Shown: one piece after another, positions 811 through 21,874 of the stretch
Position numbering within the stretch: the stretch's first letter is position 1
Layout: every line of letters starts with the position of its first letter
DNA from: an uncultured bacterium
GTDB lineage: Bacteria; Cyanobacteriota; Vampirovibrionia; Gastranaerophilales; Gastranaerophilaceae
Direction of reading: 5' to 3'
Assembly (NCBI GenBank): GCA_902796515.1
Contig: CADBOZ010000055.1
Coordinates: 1 to 35,756 of the forward strand
Length of the DNA: 35,756 nucleotides
Translations under genes and position numbers: made by a program
Notes under the pieces: generated by a model
The model's input: the letters and a program-made list of their open reading frames with translations, nothing else
Databases searched by the model: none
What the model was told of the DNA's origin: nothing

Positions 811-3800
811 ATGTCGCAAGGTAATTCAATTAATCATTTAAGTCAGGCTAATCAAAAATATATAAATTCTTATAAAACAAAAACTCCAAAGCCTGCCGTT
901 AAAATTAACAATACCCCGCATGACATTTTTGTAAATTCTAAAAAGCAGCTTAAAAGACCTGCCTTTAAAGACTTTCTTAAAGGAATTTTAATTTCGGCAG
1001 CAGTAATCGCTCCGTTTATTGCCATAGATAACATAAACCCCGAAAAAATAAGTAAGTTAATAAAAAAACTTCGGCCTTTTGATAATAAGAAATTATTTAC
1101 CGAACCTATTAGCCTTGAAAAATATTATCAAAAAATGCTTGATAAAATAAAGGGTGTGAAATTAAACTTATCTTTTGATGAAGCAAAAGTTGATGATGAT
1201 ACAATAGTTAAGTGCTTGAGAAAAATCGGAATTTTTGATTCTGATATTGAAGAATACAAGCAGCTTGTAAAAGCAAAACCGAATTTGCTGCATCTTTTAA
1301 ATGTTTTTTCTGTTTTTAATTCAAAAACCGTATCCCCGTTCAATTATACGCTTTTTGATAAAATAGATAATAATATCAGTGTCGATGAAATTGACCTTGC
1401 GGGAAAATTTGTAACAGCATTCGAAGGCAATTTTGCTTCTAAAACCGGCCGGAAAAGGCTTGCCGCTTTTGAACAAAAAATTTCATGCATGTTAAATACA
1501 AAAAAATCCCCTTATAAGGGCATCGGTTCAAAATTCAAAATTGAAGATTTACTCAACAACAGAAAAGAAATTATGGGATTATCTTCAATTCTTGAAGAAA
1601 TATACAGAAAAACGGGTAAAAAATCCGCTATCAGAAATCACGAATATTTTATTGATGCTTTGCATTTAAATCCCGCAAAAAATCCCAATGCCGACATCAG
1701 TGAATTTTTAAGTTTTCTTGAGACACTGAAAAAAGGAACTTTAAAACAAAGCTCACCTTATGATATTCAAAGAATCTTTTATGGCTATGAATCTATTGAA
1801 GATTTTAAAAAGGCAAGAAAATTTTATGAAAGCTTAAACGGTAATGTATTAAAGAAACTTGAAATACAAGATATAAGCGATTTACTAAGAGTAAAAGATA
1901 AAAATTCGGTTGAAATATCCAAGATTTTAAATAATACGCCTAAAAACATATTAAAAAAATTAGAAGCAGAAGACCTTCCCGTCTATGTAGTATATAATGA
2001 ATATTACGGCATAGATAACATTCATCAACTAAGCATTGAACAAAAAAGAGTGCTTTTAAGAAAACTTGTAAGTACAAACAGCTCGACTTTTGCTTCAGGA
2101 AAATCCGTTTCAAAAATTCTTCCGTCTAATCAGAGGGAATATTGTGCTTTGATGGACAAACTGGCTAAATCAATAGGTGTTGACACTAAACAATTATCCA
2201 AAGCCGAAATTTTAAGCTTCAATAAAACAATTAAAGAATTAGCCGAAACTATCGGAAGCGTTGATTTTAATAAAGCAACTTTTGAACTTAATTTTTCAAG
2301 ACAAGATTTTATAGCCGAAGTTGAAAAGAAAACAGCAAAACTATCGGATAAAGAAAAAATTGAAGTATCAGATTACTTCGGCTTTGAAATTAAAGACGGA
2401 AAACTTATCGGCTACCCGATAAATATTGATGATAACGGAAGGTTAAATGAAATAAGTTCCCCGAAAGTAAAAAAAGTTATAACAAAAGTTAAAGATACCG
2501 TAGAAAGATTTACATCAAAAGATAACAAAGTAACAATTAAAGGCGCAAGCAAGGAATTTAACGATAGTGTTAATAAACTCTTTGAAAGTTTCCCTGAATT
2601 AAAAACAATGATTCAAAAAGCACAGCATGAAACTCACGCTTTCACTTTGGATATCCATGTATTTAAAGTATTGCAAAATGTTTGCACTAATCCTAAGTTT
2701 AAAGAACTTTCGGATGATGATAAAAAAGTTCTTGAAATTGCATCCTTGCTGCATGATATAACAAAAGCCGAGGGTTTAAGGGATTATATGCATCCTATTG
2801 AATCGGCTTTTGATGCTTATTATATTATTCAAAAATTAAACTTACCTGAAGGTCAACAATTAAAAGTTTACGAATTGATTAAAACTCATAACTGGCTTCA
2901 GCAGTTAAATAACCCTAAAAATAAGGATATAATTGAAAATATAGCGCAGGACATTGCTTTTGATTCAAGACATACCAATACTTTTGAAATGGCAAAAATA
3001 CTGTGCGAAGCCGATTTAAAATCCGTAAGAAAAGATGCGTCATTCTTTAATTCACACAAGAAAAATCTTCAAGAAATGAGTGCAAAAGTTGACGGATATA
3101 TTAAACAGCTTCACGAGAGTCAAATTGTTCTTCCGCAGACAAAAATTCCGAAAGCCTCCGAGGTTATAAACGGTACGGAAAAAACGGCGGACGGCATAAG
3201 TAACGTCGTTATATATATGAACAGCGCCGACCCTGACTTGTCGAAATACGGATTTAGTGCGGGTACTACAAAGGAAAACTGGACAGCTCTTGTTCATGCA
3301 CTTGAACGTCCGGAACAAATGAGCAAGTTTGACACATTTAGCGTAATTGACACTGAAGCACTTTTATCAACATCCTTTATTAATCCTGATGAATACAAGG
3401 TATTTAGAAAACAAGGATTGATTTTAGATGTTAATTTTAACGATATCCATGCGGGTTACGAAATGGATTTCGGTACAGGCTACGGAAAAACTCTTGATAT
3501 TTTAAAAGAAGACTATTTATTCCACGGAAAAAGAAAAAGCTTAACCGAAAAAGATCTTTGGAGAAGTGACAGAAGCGAATACAGAACATTTATCTCGAAT
3601 AAAATAAGGGAAAAAATGCACTTGACGCCGGAAGAATATTATAAAAGACTGGAAAAAATTCAAGATTGTAAATCAATAACCGATATTGAAGCTGTTGATA
3701 AAGAGCTTGCAGACGGATTATTGAACGTATTTAAAAATATGCATGCAGGCAAAAGAAGGTTTGGAAGAGCATATAATGAAATGCTTGTTTCAAGACCAAA

Positions 3801-3903
3801 AATTCAGGGCGTATTTGCATACGACAAAAGCTATGAAGACATACCCGTATTTTTAAGAAAATATGCTTCCGATAACAATCTTCCGATTATAATTTTCGGT
3901 TAA
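811..3903 (+). CDS. Membrane-anchored HD-domain protein with unknown flanking domains
   Basis: A 1030-aa protein. An N-terminal polar stretch (1-50) precedes one hydrophobic segment near 56-74 (FLKGILISAAVIAPFIAID), probably a membrane anchor. Residues 75-590 are charged and helical, without a family I recognise. An HD-type phosphohydrolase core follows: H606/H609 in HETH, the signature H648-D649 in ASLLHDITKAEG, H661 in MHPIES and H693 in IKTHNW. These match the metal ligands of HD proteins. Residues ~805-1030 form another conserved-looking unknown domain ending in a beta-strand-like IIIFG. HD proteins hydrolyse phosphate esters of nucleotides or second messengers; the substrate here cannot be told. 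It ends one base before the convergent GH13-like gene. A weak AAGG lies 8 nt before the ATG. Confidence 0.75.
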   Translation: MSQGNSINHLSQANQKYINSYKTKTPKPAVKINNTPHDIFVNSKKQLKRPAFKDFLKGILISAAVIAPFIAIDNINPEKISKLIKKLRPFDNKKLFTEPISLEKYYQKMLDKIKGVKLNLSFDEAKVDDDTIVKCLRKIGIFDSDIEEYKQLVKAKPNLLHLLNVFSVFNSKTVSPFNYTLFDKIDNNISVDEIDLAGKFVTAFEGNFASKTGRKRLAAFEQKISCMLNTKKSPYKGIGSKFKIEDLLNNRKEIMGLSSILEEIYRKTGKKSAIRNHEYFIDALHLNPAKNPNADISEFLSFLETLKKGTLKQSSPYDIQRIFYGYESIEDFKKARKFYESLNGNVLKKLEIQDISDLLRVKDKNSVEISKILNNTPKNILKKLEAEDLPVYVVYNEYYGIDNIHQLSIEQKRVLLRKLVSTNSSTFASGKSVSKILPSNQREYCALMDKLAKSIGVDTKQLSKAEILSFNKTIKELAETIGSVDFNKATFELNFSRQDFIAEVEKKTAKLSDKEKIEVSDYFGFEIKDGKLIGYPINIDDNGRLNEISSPKVKKVITKVKDTVERFTSKDNKVTIKGASKEFNDSVNKLFESFPELKTMIQKAQHETHAFTLDIHVFKVLQNVCTNPKFKELSDDDKKVLEIASLLHDITKAEGLRDYMHPIESAFDAYYIIQKLNLPEGQQLKVYELIKTHNWLQQLNNPKNKDIIENIAQDIAFDSRHTNTFEMAKILCEADLKSVRKDASFFNSHKKNLQEMSAKVDGYIKQLHESQIVLPQTKIPKASEVINGTEKTADGISNVVIYMNSADPDLSKYGFSAGTTKENWTALVHALERPEQMSKFDTFSVIDTEALLSTSFINPDEYKVFRKQGLILDVNFNDIHAGYEMDFGTGYGKTLDILKEDYLFHGKRKSLTEKDLWRSDRSEYRTFISNKIREKMHLTPEEYYKRLEKIQDCKSITDIEAVDKELADGLLNVFKNMHAGKRRFGRAYNEMLVSRPKIQGVFAYDKSYEDIPVFLRKYASDNNLPIIIFG

Positions 3904-6453: not shown

Positions 6454-7044
6454 ATGATAAAACCAATCAAAAATTCAATTTCTTTCGGTAATTTTAAAGA
6501 ATTTCAAAACAGCTTAAAACAAGGCGGCAATTATGCTCCGAAAATGAACGGCAAAGTAAACGAAGCCGCAGTTCAAACAGCTCAAACAACTCCTAAAAAA
6601 CTCACATTTAAACAAAGGGTTTTAAATGTTTTTAAAGGATTTAACAGAGTAACCGGTGTTGCTTCAGGAGCGGCAAGAGGTGTCGCTGACGGCGTTATTT
6701 TAGCAGGTAGCGTCGGATTTATAGGAAGAAATATTAAAAGAGCAAACGGAAATATCGGAAAAACAATTACAGGTATGTTTAACGATGCCGGAAAAATTAT
6801 AAAAACCGTATTCAGTCATAAACCGATAACAAGTTTAATTACAAAAGCACCTATTGAAAATCTTAAAACATTAAAATCAATTCCCGCTAAATTCTATAAA
6901 AGCTGTATGAAGGGCAATAAGTTAACTTCTTTAGCTGTTGTCGGCACATTCCTCGGTGCTGTTGCATTTAGAACCATTCAGGGAAAACTTATCGCAAATA
7001 AGAAAAATGCGGATATTGACCACTATACAAATAATAAACACTAA
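6454..7044 (+). CDS. Unknown 196-aa protein with N-terminal ISFGN motif
   Basis: Not recognised. I start it at ATG 6454 (MIKPIKNSISFGNF), preceded by AAGGGTGG, rather than at the upstream GTG 6421. Residues 8-12 ISFGN match the [IV][NS]F-x-G pattern seen in other unknown proteins of this window. Residues ~70-100 are Gly/Ala-rich and moderately hydrophobic (ASGAARGVADGVILAGSVGF). A second hydrophobic stretch near 157-175 (LTSLAVVGTFLGAVAF) may insert in a membrane. The rest is basic (many Lys/Arg), and the C-terminus is NNKH. It is a single-gene unit between its own promoter candidate and a strong terminator. Function unknown; a small basic membrane-associated protein is all that can be said. 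Confidence 0.75.
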   Translation: MIKPIKNSISFGNFKEFQNSLKQGGNYAPKMNGKVNEAAVQTAQTTPKKLTFKQRVLNVFKGFNRVTGVASGAARGVADGVILAGSVGFIGRNIKRANGNIGKTITGMFNDAGKIIKTVFSHKPITSLITKAPIENLKTLKSIPAKFYKSCMKGNKLTSLAVVGTFLGAVAFRTIQGKLIANKKNADIDHYTNNKH

Positions 7045-11894: not shown

Positions 11895-13066
11895 TTATTT
11901 CCGAAAGTTTCGGTAAGATAGTTTTCAACCCCTTTTGCGATTGCTTTTGCAATTATTTTTTGATTTTTCTCGTTTGAAATATAATTTGCTTCGTATGAAT
12001 CAATTATATACCCGCATTCCACAAGTACACTAACGGGCAGAGTCGGTCTTGTAAGGGCAAATGAAGCATAATTAACTCCGTCATCCATAAATCCCGTTGC
12101 TTCTTTAAGACTGTCTTTGATATTTCTTGCAAGAGGTTCAGCCTGTTTATTATAGTAATAAGTGCCGACTCCGTGTTTTTTATAAACGTCTTTAGGATTA
12201 GGAAGCGAGTTTTGATGAATGCTTAATAAAATATCCGCATCCTTCTGGCGTGCAAATGCCGTTCTGTCATACAGTCCGACTTTTTTATCTTTTGTTCTTG
12301 TCATATAAACCTTAGCGCCCCGTCTTTTAAGCTCGCTTTTTAATTTTTTTGAAATTTGAAGATTTATCGTTTTTTCTTCCATATTAAAAGCAACGGCACC
12401 CTTTTCATCTCCGCCGTGTCCGGGGTCAAGCACTATTTTAATGTGTTTTAGAGGTCTTTTCTTATTGATTTTCGGTGATTTTTTAATTGTAAGAACATAA
12501 CCCTTTTCGCCTCTGTCTGCAATATATCCGAATAGCGGGGTATATCCCTGATATTCAAGATTAAATTCGTTTGAAATTAAATTTGCAAATTTAAAATTAT
12601 TTTCTTTGTTTTTAACTTCCGCTTCGGTCGGGTCAAATCTGTTGTCAAAAAGCGTAAAATCAAGATTGTTTCCGTCTTCTTTAAATATAAATGCGCTTTT
12701 CGACGGAGTATTTATTTTTGCAATATATCTGTCATGTTCTTCTTTAAAAGATACCTTTTCTATATTATCAAACCGTTTTTCGGGGATTACAGCCTGAACT
12801 TCAACGTGTTTTTTGTTTACCCAAACATATTTTCCGTCCTTTAATTCAACTCTGTAATATTTATCATTTTGCTTATCCGCAAACAAAACGGCATCTTTAA
12901 ATAAATGGGTTACTCTTGTTGCAAATTCATCCGCCTTTTCTCTGAGCGGAGTATTATCTTTCAAAACTTCAAGAACGGCATACTTTGAGATACCGACATC
13001 CTGCAATTCTTCTGATGCAAATACCGGCAATACCGATAACAGCAATAAAATTAAAGTTTTTTTCAT
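11891..13066 (-). CDS. Secreted N-acetylmuramoyl-L-alanine amidase (Amidase_3)
   Basis: A 391-aa exported cell-wall hydrolase. The signal peptide 1-18 (KKTLILLLLSVLPVFA) is probably cleaved after the Ala. An SH3-like region spans ~30-90 (TPLREKADE...KYVWVNKKH), then a linker/AMIN-like region to ~200. The zinc amidase domain covers 210-385. Visible zinc and catalytic residues are H217 (LDPGHGGD), E230/E231, H284 (LSIHQN) and E350 (VLVECGY). Such enzymes cleave between MurNAc and the stem peptide in the periplasm, often during daughter-cell separation. The start overlaps the upstream metallopeptidase gene by 4 bp (ATGA type), so translation is coupled and the two form an operon. Confidence 0.93.
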   Translation of the reverse strand: MKKTLILLLLSVLPVFASEELQDVGISKYAVLEVLKDNTPLREKADEFATRVTHLFKDAVLFADKQNDKYYRVELKDGKYVWVNKKHVEVQAVIPEKRFDNIEKVSFKEEHDRYIAKINTPSKSAFIFKEDGNNLDFTLFDNRFDPTEAEVKNKENNFKFANLISNEFNLEYQGYTPLFGYIADRGEKGYVLTIKKSPKINKKRPLKHIKIVLDPGHGGDEKGAVAFNMEEKTINLQISKKLKSELKRRGAKVYMTRTKDKKVGLYDRTAFARQKDADILLSIHQNSLPNPKDVYKKHGVGTYYYNKQAEPLARNIKDSLKEATGFMDDGVNYASFALTRPTLPVSVLVECGYIIDSYEANYISNEKNQKIIAKAIAKGVENYLTETFGNN

Positions 13067-14808
13067 TCGGTTATTTTTTCCTCAAATAACTTATCCGCAA
13101 GTTTATGTTCCGTTGTTCCGTTTAATCTTTTTGAAACTTTTTTTAGTTTTTGTCCCATAATTTCCATTTCTTTTGTCCAGATGAAATTATCAAGAACATA
13201 TTTTTCACCTTTTGAAAAATCCTGTGACAATTGAACCTGAATTATTTCGGATAACATTTTTCTTGCAGTTTCGACCATTTTATCAATTTTTACCGTCAAA
13301 ACCCCGTAATTTGAAATATTTATTGCACCTTCTTTGATGAAATAATAATTTTGCATAACCGAGCGAACTCTGTGTGCTTGTGATAATTCGGGTTTTGATT
13401 TCAGCATATTATCCGCAGCATAAGTTACAATTATTTTCTCTTTTTCTTCTTTTGTATACAATCCCTTATCGGTTAATATATCGAGCATAGACAGAGAAAC
13501 CATATCGGCTTTATTTTCTTCAATTATTGATTTATATTTACCTAACGCATCACAGCCCGATTTTGGCCCTAAGGAATGACCGTTTTCATGACCTATTGTA
13601 AACGGGTGATCCATTTTATCATCGTAATATTTGTGTAAATTTTTATCTAAAATAGCATCAAGTCTTTCCTGAAGCTTCTTTTTTGCATCTTCACTTGTAA
13701 TAAATCTTATTTGTCTGTGGTATACGTTTCTTCTTCCGCCGCCTATGGTTAAAGACAATTTATCATTGTTCGGAAGGTTTTCAGCCAATGTAATTCCCGC
13801 TCTGAATGCTCCGACATCTCCCGCTACTTCAACAAGGTCAACATCAACCATTGTTTGAGAAACTTTGCTGTCCCCGCCTATAACCTGTTTATATTGGTCA
13901 TTGTACGGCATATTTTCAGCCATAAGAGGAAGAAAGTCTTTAACTTTTAAAATATAGTCCGTTCCTTCTTTATTTACAATGCCTACTCTTGCGCCTAAAT
14001 AATCCTTTGAAATAACTTCAATATTGTTTTCTTTTAAAAGTTTATTTAATTCTTCGTTTTCATAAACGGTTTCAGTCATTTCATCGGTATAATTTTCTCT
14101 TGTTATTGTAAATTCAAGAGGGGTGTCCTGAAGAGTTGCCCATTTTTTATCCGCATAAGCATCAAGCATAGGGTCGGCTTCCGAAAATGCCTGTGCTTGA
14201 AGTCTTAGGTATTCGTTAAAAGGAATGCAGGTTGAAACACAGCTTGCACGAAGCAAAAGTACTATAATTTCTTTAAAATCATCGGAAAATTTGTCAACAT
14301 AGTCGATTGCTTTTAATTTTTGTCCGTCTCTTTCAACAACGCTTCTCTGATTTAAAATTGCACTGACTTCTTCAATTTCGCCGTTTTTAATCATATTAAT
14401 CAAAATTTTATGAAATTCTTCTTTTGTAAGGTCATCGGGATAAAAACCTCTGCCCTTTTTAAGTTCAAGTCCCGATGCAAGTTTAACAAGATTAGACTCG
14501 CAATCCAGTGCAAAAATACCTTTTTGAGCATCAAATAAAATTTTTGTAAGTTCCGCTTTTTTATTTCCTTTTTTAACTTCTTTTTCAAGAAATTCTTTAA
14601 AAGGGAGATTGTGATGGCTATCGAGCTGCATATTTATTTTTTCTATTATTCTTGCCGCTTTAACAAGATAAGACAAAGCCTTTTTATCGCCGTCTTTTAA
14701 ATTTTCAAATTCGGGTGCGTCAACATCCAGCATCTTTTTTGTAACAAGGTAGTCCTTTGATGTTCTTTTTTCAAGTTCCTCTATATCCAAACCGAAATTA
14801 TATTTCAT
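13063..14808 (-). CDS. M49-like (dipeptidyl-peptidase III family) zinc metallopeptidase
   Basis: A 581-aa cytoplasmic protein without signal peptide. The gluzincin-type core is TIGHENGHSLGP (H407, E408, H411) followed by IIEENKADMVSLSML (E430/E431, D435). This corresponds to the HExxH-like and EExxAD/E motifs of the M49 family; HENGH-SLGP closely resembles the HELxHGLGP form of bacterial and plant relatives. Upstream, a beta-rich region (~215-385, including LTIGGGRRNVYHRQIRF) also fits that group. M49 enzymes release dipeptides from short peptides; here the substrate is unknown. The gene is translationally coupled (4-bp overlap) to a secreted cell-wall amidase, hinting at muropeptide or peptide turnover. 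AGGATAGAG precedes the ATG. Confidence 0.75.
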   Translation of the reverse strand: MKYNFGLDIEELEKRTSKDYLVTKKMLDVDAPEFENLKDGDKKALSYLVKAARIIEKINMQLDSHHNLPFKEFLEKEVKKGNKKAELTKILFDAQKGIFALDCESNLVKLASGLELKKGRGFYPDDLTKEEFHKILINMIKNGEIEEVSAILNQRSVVERDGQKLKAIDYVDKFSDDFKEIIVLLLRASCVSTCIPFNEYLRLQAQAFSEADPMLDAYADKKWATLQDTPLEFTITRENYTDEMTETVYENEELNKLLKENNIEVISKDYLGARVGIVNKEGTDYILKVKDFLPLMAENMPYNDQYKQVIGGDSKVSQTMVDVDLVEVAGDVGAFRAGITLAENLPNNDKLSLTIGGGRRNVYHRQIRFITSEDAKKKLQERLDAILDKNLHKYYDDKMDHPFTIGHENGHSLGPKSGCDALGKYKSIIEENKADMVSLSMLDILTDKGLYTKEEKEKIIVTYAADNMLKSKPELSQAHRVRSVMQNYYFIKEGAINISNYGVLTVKIDKMVETARKMLSEIIQVQLSQDFSKGEKYVLDNFIWTKEMEIMGQKLKKVSKRLNGTTEHKLADKLFEEKITE

Positions 14809-14901: not shown

Positions 14902-17538
14902 TTAATTACTTGTTTTATTATGTTTTTTATTCCATCTGGTCAAAGCTTCTTTAACTTCTTCATTATCTATAGCATCAATTCCCTGTTTTCTATATATTTC
15001 AAGATAATCTTTTGCTTCTTTTAAGCTTTCAGACCACTCTTTTGTTCCGGATATTTCCCAGCAGCTTTTATAGTAGCTTAAAATTTTTATTTTTTCTTCT
15101 TCGGATAAACCAAGCCTGTCTGTTAATTCTGATGCTTTTTCAAGGTTAATTTCGCTAAGCAAAAGTATTTTTCTTATGGTATTTAATGAATTATATTTTT
15201 CAAGAAGTTCTTTAATGCCTTCATCCAATAGTGCGCCCTGAACGGCTTTTGTTTTGGGAGATAAAGCCCATGCTATAACGAGTCTTAATGAACGGTCTTC
15301 AGCTATTTCTTTTTTCATTTGCTCTTCCTGAAGAGCTTTTAATTTTGCCGCCAGCTGCCTGTCTTCAGCCTTTCCGTCTATATATTCTCTTGCTTCTTTT
15401 CTTGTCAGCGCACCTGAATTTATAAATTTTTCATATTCTTCATGGTTATGTTTTTTATATTCTTTGTAATTTTTGTACGATTGGGATAAAAACTCTTTAA
15501 ATTCAGGGTTTTTTACCTTTTTAAAATATTCTAAATTTTTCCTGTCAAAAAGATTTATGCAATAATCGGAATATTCTGTCATATATAAAGGATTTTCGGT
15601 TATAACATTAATTTTATCTTCCGATAATGCTTGTAAAAATTCTTCTCTGCTTTCGCCGAGTTTTCTTTGCAAATCAATAATATTAATAATTGCAGGGTTT
15701 CTTTTTCTTGCAAGAGTTAAAAGCTGCATCATTTCTTTTCTGTGTAAATCATAGAAATCATTGTCGTAAATATATTGTTGTATTTTATTAAAATCAGCCC
15801 TCATTGTTTCACCGGCAAGCGCTATTAAATCTTCTTTTGAACCATATCCCAATACTTTAAGTACGGATGCAGGGTATTTCTTCATAGGCGAATTAATACC
15901 GTTTGCAGTTACTTTGTTTCTGAGGCATGCTTCTTTGATATTTGCGGGAGCTAAATATGGCTTAGTTTCCTGCAATTCTTTAATTTGTTCTTTCTTTTCC
16001 AAGCTTTGCGCCAGTTGTTTAATAAATTTTTCATTTGTTTCATTTTTCGTATCAAACATATAATAATAAGAATCTAAGCGAGGCATAGTTTTTGCTTTTT
16101 CAACGCCAAACGGAACAAGTTCACCTTTAGATACGGCGTTTTCTATCTTTACATGTGTTATTTGATACTTTTCTTCAAGCTCGGATATGGTTAAAATTTC
16201 ATCTCTTCTTTTTGCCAAGTTATCCAGAAATTCTTTATTTTTACCTGTTATACCGCCAAAATATGCCGAAAAGTTTGTTTTTAGATTGGGTTTTAAATTA
16301 CCATGTTTAATTAAATTGTAAACGTACATATCCTCCAGTTTTAATTCTTTTGCAATATCACTTGCAGTAATAAACTTTTTATCAAGAATTTTTAGCGCAC
16401 CAAAACTTGCAATTACGCTTCCGTCTGCAATTATATTTTCATTTAAAGATTCGGCTGCTGCTTCCGATAGCACTATAGAACCTTTGACTCTTACTATATC
16501 TTTTAAAAGGCGGCTGTAATCAAATCCGAGTTCGTCATAGCTGATATCGAACCTTTTACCTGCAATATAGTTTGAAAGTTTAAATTCAAGGTCGCCGTCC
16601 ACCGTTATTTCGCCGTTTTCATCTTTTTTTGCGGGAATGCCGAGACTTTTTAATGCTTCAAAGCTGTCCTCTTTTTTGAGCAATTCTTTTACGTTTCGTA
16701 TTTTTTGTTGAAAATAAGGCTCCATGAATACAAGTTTCTTTGCCGCCTCTTTATTTTCCGAAAATAATGCTCTCGAACACTCAAGTTTTGTTATATAAGG
16801 AAGTTCTCTTACTTTGATATAGTGGTCAACACTATCGGCTTTTTCAAATATTGCACTTCCTTTTATTCTTGTAACATGGCTTAAAAGTTCTTTTTCGTTT
16901 ATATCAAAGCCTGATAGGGTTTGTTGTTTATGTTTAAGATTTACACGAATAGGCGTATAATCGCCTTCTATTGTAATATCTTCGCTGTTTGATGAGGTTT
17001 TAAAACCCAGGATATTTAACGCTTTTTCATATTCTTTATTTTTTAGCGCTTTATTAACGTCTTTTGCTTTTATTTCTTCCCTTTTGCAAAACATTTCATA
17101 TACATAATCGGGACTGTCGCCTTTTATAGCGATAACATTTTTTAAAAGTCTTTCTTCGTCAATTCCAATCTTTTTATAATCAGTTCTGTCAAAAGCTGCA
17201 CCGGATTTTTTTTGAACCTGATATATCATTACGGGATGATAGTTGCCGTTTATTATAATGCCGTCCGTTCCATTATTCGAGGTTACATCGCATCCTAAAA
17301 TTTCAAGTGCCGCTGCATCATCACCTTTATCAAGCAGGTCATTGACCTGTTGTGCAAGATTATTATAATATTCTTGCGCTTCTTCGGATGTTTTAAAAGA
17401 TTGTTTAATGCTGCCCGTAAAATTAACGGTATCCTGATTTAAAGGTAATTTCATTTTAAGATTTGATATCGGATTGGAAACAGCTTTCCCCGCTTTTTTA
17501 ATTGCATGGTTAAGATTGTTCAATAAATTAATTTGCAT
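14902..17538 (-). CDS. Unknown 878-aa protein: three tandem repeats plus HTH-like segments
   Basis: Not recognised as a whole. After a basic leader, residues 38-43 (VNFTGS) give the [IV][NS]F-x-G motif. Three divergent repeats of ~70-77 residues follow (about 65-141, 160-229, 282-354). Each has an A-L-x-x-L-G helix end, an acidic I-x-[IV]-[DEN]-G-[DN] turn, an F-D step and a closing LL-x-x-[IV]-x-x-[IV]-KG. Then come helix-turn-helix/excisionase-like segments at ~389-416 (ITASDIAKELKLEDMYVYNL, then IKHGNLKP) and ~448-476 (LTISELEEKYQITHVKIENA, then VSKGELVP). A weaker one may lie at ~613-646. The last 200 residues are highly charged and helical, with repeated KEY/EYEKF stretches. A DNA- or RNA-binding scaffold is my inference. 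No signal peptide; possibly monocistronic. Confidence 0.7.
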   Translation of the reverse strand: MQINLLNNLNHAIKKAGKAVSNPISNLKMKLPLNQDTVNFTGSIKQSFKTSEEAQEYYNNLAQQVNDLLDKGDDAAALEILGCDVTSNNGTDGIIINGNYHPVMIYQVQKKSGAAFDRTDYKKIGIDEERLLKNVIAIKGDSPDYVYEMFCKREEIKAKDVNKALKNKEYEKALNILGFKTSSNSEDITIEGDYTPIRVNLKHKQQTLSGFDINEKELLSHVTRIKGSAIFEKADSVDHYIKVRELPYITKLECSRALFSENKEAAKKLVFMEPYFQQKIRNVKELLKKEDSFEALKSLGIPAKKDENGEITVDGDLEFKLSNYIAGKRFDISYDELGFDYSRLLKDIVRVKGSIVLSEAAAESLNENIIADGSVIASFGALKILDKKFITASDIAKELKLEDMYVYNLIKHGNLKPNLKTNFSAYFGGITGKNKEFLDNLAKRRDEILTISELEEKYQITHVKIENAVSKGELVPFGVEKAKTMPRLDSYYYMFDTKNETNEKFIKQLAQSLEKKEQIKELQETKPYLAPANIKEACLRNKVTANGINSPMKKYPASVLKVLGYGSKEDLIALAGETMRADFNKIQQYIYDNDFYDLHRKEMMQLLTLARKRNPAIINIIDLQRKLGESREEFLQALSEDKINVITENPLYMTEYSDYCINLFDRKNLEYFKKVKNPEFKEFLSQSYKNYKEYKKHNHEEYEKFINSGALTRKEAREYIDGKAEDRQLAAKLKALQEEQMKKEIAEDRSLRLVIAWALSPKTKAVQGALLDEGIKELLEKYNSLNTIRKILLLSEINLEKASELTDRLGLSEEEKIKILSYYKSCWEISGTKEWSESLKEAKDYLEIYRKQGIDAIDNEEVKEALTRWNKKHNKTSN

Positions 17539-17610: not shown

Positions 17611-17653
17611 TTTAATAAAACAGTCAGGGTGTTACCCTGACTGTTTTATTAAA
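17611..17653 (-). terminator. Very stable hairpin terminator after rubrerythrin
   Basis: A perfect 20-bp stem (17611-17630 with 17634-17653) has a 3-nt loop. The core is CAGTCAGGGT / ACCCTGACTG flanked by A/T arms, so T-rich ends appear on either strand. It begins 18 nt after the rubrerythrin stop codon and separates that gene from the 878-aa gene on the same strand. Confidence 0.85.
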
Positions 17654-20106: not shown

Positions 20107-20970
20107 TTACAGTCTTCCATTTATATTGTTCAGGGATTTATCTATATACTCCTCAAATTTTATTTTATCACTTTCCGGATAAATTATTTTACATAAAATA
20201 TCATATCTTAAAAGTCTTTTAAATAAAACTTCTTTATCTTTACCGCCGTTTGCAATTCTTATTCCGTTTTCAAAACAATCTACCACCGTTTCTTCTTCTC
20301 TTAGAATATATGTTTTTGCAAGGTGCCCGTATATCTCAAAAATTGTTTCTTTTCCTTCTGGATTTCCGATTTTAACGGACATTTCAGGTTCAATATTGAT
20401 TAATTTGTCGGCAAGTATTGTTTTTATTTTATTATCATCGTTTATAAAATTAAAGTAAACTTTATTTTTTCTGTAGCTTACTTTATAAGGTCTTAATCTG
20501 AATATACCTTTATTTTTGACGGTTATTTCACAAATTATCTTAAGTTTTAAATATTTTTCAAATAAGTTGATTTTATCTTTAAAATTATTATAACCGGCGG
20601 ATTTTCTTTGCGATATAAACATATCACACGCTTTTTTGTATGTATCTGTATCGGTCATGGAAAGCATTTTTTTAATAATTTTTTCTGTTTTATCCGATTC
20701 TGCACTGCTTAACATATTTTCGCTTATTTTATTAATTTCCGCCAGAAAATCCATATCGGACAAATCTAATGATACGGCATTAGCGTATTTGTTAATACTG
20801 TACGAATTTCCTGTTTTTATAACATCAAAACCCGCCTGTTTAAAATTTTTTATGTATTTATAGAATGTCTGCTCCTTTATTTGAAATTTTCTCTCAACAT
20901 CTTCCTGAGTCAAACATTCGTCTTGAAGGGCTTTGAATAATTCTAAAATATTTAGTTTACTGTTTTTCAT
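20107..20970 (-). CDS. WYL-domain transcriptional regulator, second of a tandem pair
   Basis: A 287-aa protein. An N-terminal winged helix (about 1-55, LTQEDVERKFQIKEQTFYKY followed by a wing GFDVIKTGNSYSI) is followed by a helical linker. Then comes a beta-rich WYL-like domain (~145-215) with CEITVKNKGIFRLRPYKVSYRK and a C-terminal extension with a characteristic TVVDCFENG. WYL domains sense ligands such as nucleic acid fragments or nucleotides and control transcription. The literal W-Y-L residues are degenerate here, so ligand binding is uncertain. It overlaps the preceding WYL regulator by 14 bp and precedes a small membrane protein by 1 bp: a three-gene operon. Confidence 0.75.
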   Translation of the reverse strand: MKNSKLNILELFKALQDECLTQEDVERKFQIKEQTFYKYIKNFKQAGFDVIKTGNSYSINKYANAVSLDLSDMDFLAEINKISENMLSSAESDKTEKIIKKMLSMTDTDTYKKACDMFISQRKSAGYNNFKDKINLFEKYLKLKIICEITVKNKGIFRLRPYKVSYRKNKVYFNFINDDNKIKTILADKLINIEPEMSVKIGNPEGKETIFEIYGHLAKTYILREEETVVDCFENGIRIANGGKDKEVLFKRLLRYDILCKIIYPESDKIKFEEYIDKSLNNINGRL

Positions 20971-21874
20971 ATTCTTTTTTCAATAATTTTAATCTTTTTT
21001 CAACTTCTTTTTTTATTTCTTCATCGGATATATAATGCAAATCCGGACAAAATGACATAAGTCTTTGAACAATATAAAATTTATTATTTTTATTTCTTTT
21101 TATTATTGCAAAATCTTCGGTTAATTTGACAAGTTTTTCTTCCTCATCCAAATCAATTTCATCATAAAGAGCTCTTGAAATTTTATATTCAATATCGTCC
21201 TGTTTAATATTAAAGGGGACGTTTTCTTCAACAACTTTATCTATCATAAATATTTTATCTGCCGGCAAAAATGATAATTCACCGTTATCAAATAATTCTC
21301 CCCAGAGATAAATTTTATCCGACCATTCCCCGATTGATATACTGTTGCAATGAATTTTCATTTTTGTAAGCTCGCATCCGTGCTTTGCATAGTCTATAAT
21401 TATTACATCCTTGTTTTTACAGTGTTTTTCAAGCTTATCAACCAGATACCAGTTAATTTTTGAATAATACTCAAAATCAATAAGAATATTTTTATCATCG
21501 TCACAATTTGACATCAAAAGTATAAATTTATACAAAAATTCCATGGCTTTTTTTATTTTATTAACATTTTTTTGGGAAATTATTATTTTTTTAATTTTTT
21601 CAATAAGCCAAATTTCATCTTCTTTAAAATTCAATTTAAAAGCTTTTTGATTAAGATGATATATTTTAGTGTTATTTTCCTTTTTTACCTCTATATCAAA
21701 GTTGCTTTTAATAAGGGTGTTTATATATGAATTAACGGAAGTTCTGTCTGCTTCTTTCGGGCTTGCTTTAGAAAGCTCTTCAATAAGTTTTTCAATACTT
21801 ATATCACCCTTTGTTAAAAGATAAAGCGTGTATAATACTCTTTGTACCCTAGTGGTTTGCAGCAAATTTTCCAT
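20957..21874 (-). CDS. WYL-domain transcriptional regulator, first of a tandem pair
   Basis: A 305-aa protein. The N-terminal helix-turn-helix (about 8-75, RVQRVLYTLYLLTKGDISIE onward to SYINTLIKSNFDIEVKKENN) matches the DeoR-like winged helix that precedes WYL domains. Residues ~150-225 (DVIIIDYAKHG... SISIGEWSDKIYLWGELFDN) are the beta-barrel WYL-like part. The C-terminus is charged (KEVEKRLKLLKKEYEKQ). It is distantly similar in layout to the next gene, so the pair probably acts as a heterodimer or arose by duplication. No Shine-Dalgarno precedes the ATG and a TAAAAT sits 9 nt upstream, suggesting a leaderless transcript. The gene is divergent from the transglycosylase-fliE-fliF operon. 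Confidence 0.75.
   Translation of the reverse strand: MENLLQTTRVQRVLYTLYLLTKGDISIEKLIEELSKASPKEADRTSVNSYINTLIKSNFDIEVKKENNTKIYHLNQKAFKLNFKEDEIWLIEKIKKIIISQKNVNKIKKAMEFLYKFILLMSNCDDDKNILIDFEYYSKINWYLVDKLEKHCKNKDVIIIDYAKHGCELTKMKIHCNSISIGEWSDKIYLWGELFDNGELSFLPADKIFMIDKVVEENVPFNIKQDDIEYKISRALYDEIDLDEEEKLVKLTEDFAIIKRNKNNKFYIVQRLMSFCPDLHYISDEEIKKEVEKRLKLLKKEYEKQ

What the first reader, a model, noticed from the sequence alone, without database searches (positions are those of the whole stretch)
14902..17538. Large unknown protein with three tandem repeats and several helix-turn-helix-like units
The 878-aa product has three divergent ~70-77-residue repeats (65-141, 160-229, 282-354) with a shared A-L-x-x-L-G / acidic turn-G-[DN] / F-D / LL-x-x-[IV]-x-x-[IV]-KG layout. 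Two or three segments then resemble excisionase/MerR winged helices (389-416, 448-476, perhaps 613-646). I know no family combining these. Multiple HTH units on one chain after a repeat domain could mean a nucleoid- or RNA-binding scaffold. Seen: repeats and HTH-like patterns. Inferred: nucleic acid binding.
Basis: partly seen in the sequence, partly recalled or inferred. Interest (0 to 1): 0.65.

Follow-up and report, generated by a model that had tools for sequence, protein, structure and literature searches.

The report
Tagged LRR-cap and winged-helix array protein
A fast-evolving protein found only in one family of gut cyanobacterial relatives strings together a short N-terminal tag, three copies of a small domain that normally caps leucine-rich-repeat proteins, and four linked winged-helix units; it looks like a multi-site binding scaffold, and its target is unknown.

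Summary
The minus-strand ORF 14902-17538 (878 aa, Ca. Gastranaerophilales) has three homologous repeats (64-141, 160-229, 282-354; profile-profile E 6e-17 to 1e-20). It has not two or three but four mutually homologous winged-helix units of MerR/excisionase topology (about 389-445, 446-512, 551-614, 615-676), plus a disordered N-terminal tag and a helical C-terminal domain. AlphaFold models are confident (pLDDT 86 whole; 95 for repeat 3 plus HTH1-2).

The repeat is a lineage-specific domain: 118 of 288 family genomes carry it, none found outside the family. In relatives it is usually single-copy, just before an L-domain/LRR-like solenoid. Four-HTH paralogs occur in 28 of 288 family genomes. 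Both groups share an N-terminal motif, D-x-[VILFC]-x-F-x-[GAS] (28/38 and 11/40, against 6/555 other ORFs).

The nucleoid/RNA scaffold reading is not supported. HTH1, HTH2 and HTH4 lack the net positive charge of genuine MerR/Xis domains of the genus, and dN/dS (0.31) is 2-10 times that of neighbours. I favour a targeted, multivalent, mainly protein-binding adaptor. Export through a retained flagellar-type apparatus is an open alternative. New variant of known kinds; function untested.

The parts
14902..17538 (-). whole coding sequence, 878 aa
   Evidence: ortholog L005 58% identical over full length
17410..17538 (-). N-terminal tag, residues 1-43, disordered, with motif LNQDTVNFTG
   Evidence: pLDDT under 50 at 1-41; motif class D-x-[VILFC]-x-F-x-[GAS] in 28/38 R-domain and 11/40 HTH-array proteins vs 6/555 background
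17116..17349 (-). repeat R1, residues 64-141
   Evidence: HMM E 4.9e-25; helix-helix-four strands-helix-strand
16852..17061 (-). repeat R2, residues 160-229
   Evidence: HMM E 1.2e-22; same order of elements
16477..16695 (-). repeat R3, residues 282-354, followed by a segment resembling an LRR rung
   Evidence: HMM E 2.1e-26; profile match to PDB 8z5u LRR after R3; model pLDDT 95
16204..16374 (-). winged-helix unit HTH1, residues 389-445
   Evidence: hhalign to genuine MerR/Xis 92%, E 6e-7; MerR-type structures listed
16003..16203 (-). winged-helix unit HTH2, residues 446-512
   Evidence: hhalign to genuine MerR/Xis 88%, E 2.9e-6; VIA-align Z 3.0-3.5 to MerR, SoxR, GlnR, Xis
   Evidence: profile homology to HTH1, HTH2, HTH4 (E 8.6e-6, 1.6e-6, 1e-5); strand-helix-helix order
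15511..15696 (-). winged-helix unit HTH4, residues 615-676
   Evidence: profile homology to HTH2 97.7%, E 1.9e-12; acidic
14905..15510 (-). helical C-terminal region, residues 677-878; 741-878 shared with paralogs
   Evidence: W757, W827, G831, G853 invariant among the 13 sequences
17611..17653 (+). 20-pair terminator-like palindrome between the rubrerythrin gene and this gene, so the gene probably has its own promoter

Best explanation
A non-enzymatic, modular binding scaffold specific to one Gastranaerophilales family. A disordered N-terminal tag shared with other lineage-specific proteins specifies where the protein goes (inferred). Three tandem copies of a small alpha/beta domain, which in relatives caps L-domain/LRR-type solenoids, present one binding surface (inferred from that association). 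Four covalently linked MerR/excisionase-type winged helices followed by a helical domain present a second, extended surface. The winged helices have mostly lost the basic character needed for ordinary DNA reading and have probably been turned to binding proteins (inferred). Fast change of R1 and HTH1 with slower HTH3-4 and C-terminal domain suggests a variable partner at the N-terminal side and a more constant one at the C-terminal side (inferred). Shown: domain anatomy, homology of the repeats and of the HTH units, distribution, rates and tag enrichment. Not shown: any binding, location or phenotype.
For: Repeats are homologous and group by position R1, R2, R3 across genera (local supports 0.96, 0.91, 0.82), so the triplication is old and kept. 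The R domain occurs in 118/288 family genomes and 29/41 genera, usually as one copy directly before a solenoid of about 20-residue rungs; one such solenoid matches Pfam Recep_L_domain at 1.5e-8. LRR and EGFR L-domain structures are listed for the R3 part of the model. Four homologous winged-helix units with high-confidence models. Charge deficit in HTH1, HTH2 and HTH4 against genuine MerR/Xis of the same genus (domain p 2.4e-5, 1.8e-4, 1e-9). dN/dS 0.31 against 0.03-0.15 for eight neighbours; 0.59 in R1 and 0.64 in HTH1 against 0.16 in the C-terminal domain. No Pfam or NCBIfam family at cut-off and no PADLOC match, so no catalytic domain is recognised.
Against: Net charge is a weak proxy for DNA binding. 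The control MerR set is dominated by one ortholog group, and the recognition helices alone differ significantly only for HTH2 and HTH4. HTH3 keeps a mildly positive charge. Structural matches to MerR/Xis and to LRR are weak (Z 2-3.8; Foldseek E above 0.08). Fast evolution can also reflect relaxed constraint.
Confidence: 0.45

Rival explanations
1. A nucleic-acid-binding array. The four linked MerR-like units are a covalent version of the head-to-tail multimers that BldC or RdfS form on DNA, and the protein organises a DNA site, the nucleoid (as RacA does) or an RNA (as the tandem winged helices of SelB do). Bacterial, cytosolic.
For: HTH1 and HTH2 match genuine MerR/Xis profiles. Structures listed at the HTH part of the model are nearly all DNA-binding MerR, SoxR, GlnR, Xis, BldC and RacA proteins. 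BldC binds direct repeats as cooperative multimers (PMC5859096, title); RdfS is an oligomeric wHTH protein (PMC11963761).
Against: Low or negative net charge of HTH1, HTH2 and HTH4; HTH1 among the fastest-evolving segments; patchy presence, 28/288 family genomes for the HTH array; no curated HTH family reached cut-off.
Confidence: 0.25
2. An exported effector or surface protein. The disordered N-terminal tag is an export signal read by the flagellar-type type III export apparatus that these bacteria keep, and the repeat and winged-helix modules bind a target in a neighbouring cell or host.
For: Tag shared by proteins of different architecture and disordered. A second FlhA-type export gate, 38% identical to the canonical one, is in the window's genome and is the best FHIPEP hit in some family genomes; 287/288 family genomes have at least one FHIPEP. 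Fast evolution. Gut Melainabacteria with flagellar genes but no filament genes are reported (PMC3787301).
Against: No export was or could be tested. Type III signals usually share no short consensus, whereas this tag does. No host-targeting domain was found. Tagged proteins make up only a few percent of the sampled ORFs and are mostly of unknown role.
Confidence: 0.2
3. A decaying accessory or anti-phage gene without a conserved role.
For: Broken copies in G010 (an in-frame TGA, split ORFs) and remnants in G002 and G007; patchy distribution.
Against: dN/dS 0.31 and an intact full-length frame in the window and in G013, G208 and G258. No PADLOC match; no match in phages or plasmids.
Confidence: 0.1

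Closest known systems
MerR/excisionase-type winged helices (Pfam MerR_1, HTH_17; BldC, RacA, GlnR, SoxR, Xis structures)
   Same: beta-alpha-alpha-beta(-alpha) order, G-x-L-x-P after helix 2, profile similarity for HTH1 and HTH2
   Different: Four copies on one chain, internal rather than N-terminal, no curated score reached, low basic charge
Receptor L-domain / leucine-rich-repeat solenoids (Pfam Recep_L_domain; PDB 8z5u LRR)
   Same: The R domain precedes such solenoids in relatives, and a rung-like segment follows R3
   Different: Here the cap is tandemly triplicated and the solenoid is replaced by the HTH array
SelB C-terminal region and RPC62 (tandem winged-helix proteins; recalled from general knowledge, not tested)
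   Same: Several winged helices in tandem on one chain
   Different: Other winged-helix subtype; no sequence relation shown; RPC62 appeared only against the helical C-terminal region
TniQ
   Same: HTH-bearing protein matched at HTH1-2 (Z 3.8, 79 residues, rmsd 4.4)
   Different: Tied with MerR rows; no transposon context; no other shared domain found

Membership tests
MerR/excisionase winged-helix superfamily | beta-alpha-alpha-beta winged-helix topology | tested here: met
   AF2 models, pLDDT above 90 over most of HTH1-2
MerR/excisionase winged-helix superfamily | sequence-profile similarity to genuine members | tested here: inconclusive
   HTH1 92%, HTH2 88%, HTH4 37%, HTH3 0.1%; HTH3 joins only through the other units
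MerR/excisionase winged-helix superfamily | curated Pfam score (HTH_17 27 bits, MerR_1 21.6 bits) | tested here: not met
   P0001 HTH_17 16.3 bits; best relative L003 25.3 bits
MerR transcription regulators | single N-terminal HTH followed by dimerising coiled coil and effector domain | tested here: not met
   four internal HTH units after three repeats
DNA-binding wHTH proteins | basic DNA-facing surface | tested here: inconclusive
   net charge of HTH1, HTH2 and HTH4 below genuine controls; HTH3 not different (p 0.17); net charge only, no electrostatic map
DNA-binding wHTH proteins | binding to DNA | not testable with these tools
   needs gel shift or ChIP
LRR / receptor L-domain proteins | run of consecutive LRR-like rungs | tested here: not met
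   no Recep_L_domain or LRR hit in P0001; rungs present in R-domain relatives
R-domain family of this lineage (defined here) | match to the R profile | tested here: met
   three matches, E 1.2e-22 to 2.1e-26, profile includes this protein; R copies of other genomes align at 22-45% identity
four-HTH plus C-terminal-domain paralog family (defined here) | match over HTH1-4 and C-terminal domain | tested here: met
   E 8.9e-140 (profile includes this protein); pairwise E about 1e-8 to 1e-15 to the paralogs
type III exported proteins | disordered N-terminal export signal | tested here: inconclusive
   residues 1-41 disordered with conserved motif; export itself not testable

The most novel reading that the evidence does not exclude
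This Gastranaerophilales family carries a lineage-specific set of proteins that share an N-terminal address tag and mix exchangeable LRR-cap, L-domain-solenoid and winged-helix-array modules. The tag sends them to, or through, a second flagellar-type export apparatus that is kept even where the canonical flagellar export gate is missing, so this protein would be one cargo of an undescribed secretion pathway.
Probability: 0.15. Interest if true: 0.8.

Novelty: new variant of a known kind. Interest (0 to 1): 0.45.

Why it matters
It defines a domain (R), a four-unit winged-helix array and a shared N-terminal motif, none of them found in the searched family libraries, in an uncultured and common gut lineage. 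The tag links proteins of different architecture and gives a simple, testable handle on how these bacteria sort or export their fast-evolving proteins. It also warns against calling every winged helix a DNA reader.

Tried and rejected
Close-relative scans of viral contigs and genome contigs with the protein alone found nothing; an alignment of paralogs found ten loci and the organism names. Phage and plasmid collections had no match, so a mobile-element origin has no support here. Pfam and NCBIfam gave nothing above cut-off, PADLOC nothing, PHROGs only weak excisionase hits; sub-threshold AbiEi_4, RHH_3 and excisionase hits were read as general HTH similarity. Fold search with the whole 878-aa model gave only unspecific, mostly helical matches, which led to the smaller model. 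No fold match above Z 3.8 was found with that model; this does not show a new fold. A first loose regex for the N-terminal motif showed no enrichment (48 against 45) because it also picked up membrane segments; stricter motifs did, but they were framed after seeing examples, so the figures are somewhat optimistic. An exact DTVSFG-like DNA pattern is only about three times more frequent than its reversed control. A first charge-control script recovered one sequence and was replaced (then 86). Filing the protein as a MerR regulator was rejected (membership test).

Full report
Setting. The window is a contig (C55 of G000) of a 1.85-Mb draft genome. Paralogs of the protein from genomes of the same genus are in records named Candidatus Gastranaerophilales, and one is RUG14156, so the organism belongs to the non-photosynthetic gut relatives of Cyanobacteria. 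The ORF lies on the minus strand, 17538 down to 14902. A 20-pair terminator-like palindrome at 17611-17653 separates it from the upstream rubrerythrin gene, so it is probably its own transcription unit.

Observation check. Each pair beats 1000 shuffles, and profile-profile E-values are 5.9e-19, 6.4e-17 and 1.1e-20. In the AlphaFold2 model (mean pLDDT 86, pTM 0.51) all three have two helices, four strands, a helix and a strand. The HTH impression is also right: four units, strand-helix-helix-strand, at about 389-445, 446-512, 551-614 and 615-676. A second model of residues 275-512 has pLDDT 95 and pTM 0.88. Family profiles show the four units to be mutually homologous (E 1e-5 to 2e-12). HTH1 and HTH2 match 32 genuine MerR/Xis domains taken from the same genus (92%, 88%), HTH4 weakly (37%), HTH3 not at all; R and C-terminal controls score 1.3% or less. 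The low pTM of the whole model means that the relative placement of the domains is not known.

Relatives and distribution. The full architecture (tag, three R repeats, four HTH, C-terminal domain) is seen in the window and G013 and, diverged, in G208 and G258; G288 has it without R1. L006 and L007 lack the C-terminal domain and R2; L074 has three repeats but stops after HTH2; L073 has no repeats. A paralog family of about 500 aa with four HTH units and the C-terminal domain but no R repeats makes up most of the hits in 19 of 28 genomes of the genus and 28 of 288 of the family; in a draw of 194 genomes of the class only three, all of this family, matched. Members sit at different chromosomal places: next to ribosomal protein genes, alaS, or between genes I read by eye as uvrB and proC.

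The repeat as a domain. A profile of single R copies matches 118 of 288 family genomes in 29 of 41 genera, and in a draw across the class all 42 positive genomes belong to this family. In most of the extracted relatives the domain is single. In many it follows a domain with a conserved W-C-T-K-S and G-D-F-H-V-Y-L-E-N-G-K-P pattern (no clear Pfam match), and in most it precedes a solenoid of about 20-residue rungs, I-G-G-D-A-x-F-x-x-S-x-I-T-x-L-G-N-L; one solenoid matches Recep_L_domain at 1.5e-8. The segment after R3 matches PDB 8z5u, an LRR protein, through several weak rungs (whole-sequence E 3.5e-5, best single rung E 0.66). I therefore read R as a cap domain of L-domain/LRR solenoids that has been triplicated here. 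R1, R2 and R3 of different genera group by position (local supports 0.96, 0.91, 0.82), so the triplication predates the split of these genera and later copies were lost.

The tag. Residues 1-41 are disordered and lead into LNQDTVNFTG. A strict motif D-x-[VILFC]-x-F-x-[GAS] occurs in the first 90 residues of 28 of 38 R-domain proteins, 11 of 40 HTH-array proteins without R, and 6 of 555 other ORFs; several of the remaining family members have variants such as NPINFKG. In a sample of 428 ORFs, which includes family members, a related motif is at the N-terminus in 6.1% against 1.1% of interior windows. The motif was framed after seeing examples, so these figures are descriptive. The tag is thus a module of its own.

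Evolution. Against G013 the gene is 58% identical with dN/dS 0.31, while eight neighbours are 75-98% identical with dN/dS 0.03-0.15. By segment, R1 (0.59) and HTH1 (0.64) change fastest and the C-terminal domain (0.16) slowest; synonymous change is near saturation in some segments, so segment values are rough. Broken or residual copies exist in G010, G002 and G007.

Does it bind DNA? Structures listed for the HTH part of the small model are almost all MerR, GlnR, SoxR, Xis, BldC or RacA (Z 2-3.8), which supports the fold, at such scores only by consistency. In genuine MerR/Xis domains of the genus the net charge is +2.4 on average; in the family it is -0.6, -0.1, +1.4 and -2.0 for HTH1-4. I take this as evidence that at least HTH1, HTH2 and HTH4 are not ordinary DNA readers. 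Net charge does not exclude it.

Mechanism. Shown: anatomy, homology, distribution, rates. Inferred: a targeted scaffold whose R-side partner varies and whose C-terminal side is more constant, binding mostly proteins. A DNA/RNA array in the manner of BldC (PMC5859096) or of tandem winged-helix proteins is the main rival, and export through a flagellar-type apparatus the most consequential one. The window's genome has two full-length FlhA-type gates: one in an flhA-flhB-fliRQP operon (identified by eye), the other of a type that in G033 and G028 sits beside fliE, fliF and fliH; the two types are 38% identical. In several family genomes the best hit is of the second type. Partial flagellar gene sets in gut Melainabacteria have been reported (PMC3787301, PMC5877343). 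Nothing here ties the tag to that apparatus.

Verdict. A real, unannotated, lineage-specific modular protein; a new variant built from known fold types. Interest is moderate: the anatomy is solid, the function open.

Noticed in passing
14902-17538 (residues 1-43), 6454-7044, and L007, L071, L104, L110, L112, L133 and others: A short N-terminal motif (D-x-V-x-F-x-G and variants such as NINFKG or ISFGN) marks a few percent of proteins of otherwise different architecture in this lineage; possible address or export signal.
   Followed up: partly
L198 4081-10067; L199 8136-14236; L200 7653-12701; L204 5689-7773: Two full-length FlhA-type export gates in the window's genome (types 38% identical), plus a partial FHIPEP match on C10; one type is in a fliE-fliF-x-fliH-flhA cluster in relatives and is the best FHIPEP hit in family genomes such as G028 and G033.
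   Followed up: partly
L129, L133, L142, L145 and other R-domain loci: Family of proteins with a WCTKS...GDFHVYLENGKP domain, one R cap and a solenoid of about 20-residue L-domain-like rungs; the first domain has no clear Pfam match.
   Followed up: partly
13063-14808 (-): 581-aa protein with HENGH and a downstream EENKAD pattern, reminiscent of zinc metallopeptidases (dipeptidyl-peptidase III-like, from memory); no Pfam match and absent from the syntenic place in G013.
   Followed up: no
811-3903 (+): 1030-aa protein with a sub-threshold HD-domain match (E 0.0023) and otherwise unassigned.
   Followed up: no
20107-21874 (-): Two adjacent, fairly fast-evolving genes, one with a sub-threshold HTH_28 match; possibly paired WYL-like regulators, not tested.
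   Followed up: no
17611-17653: 20-pair terminator-like palindrome between the end of the rubrerythrin gene and the start of the studied gene.
   Followed up: no
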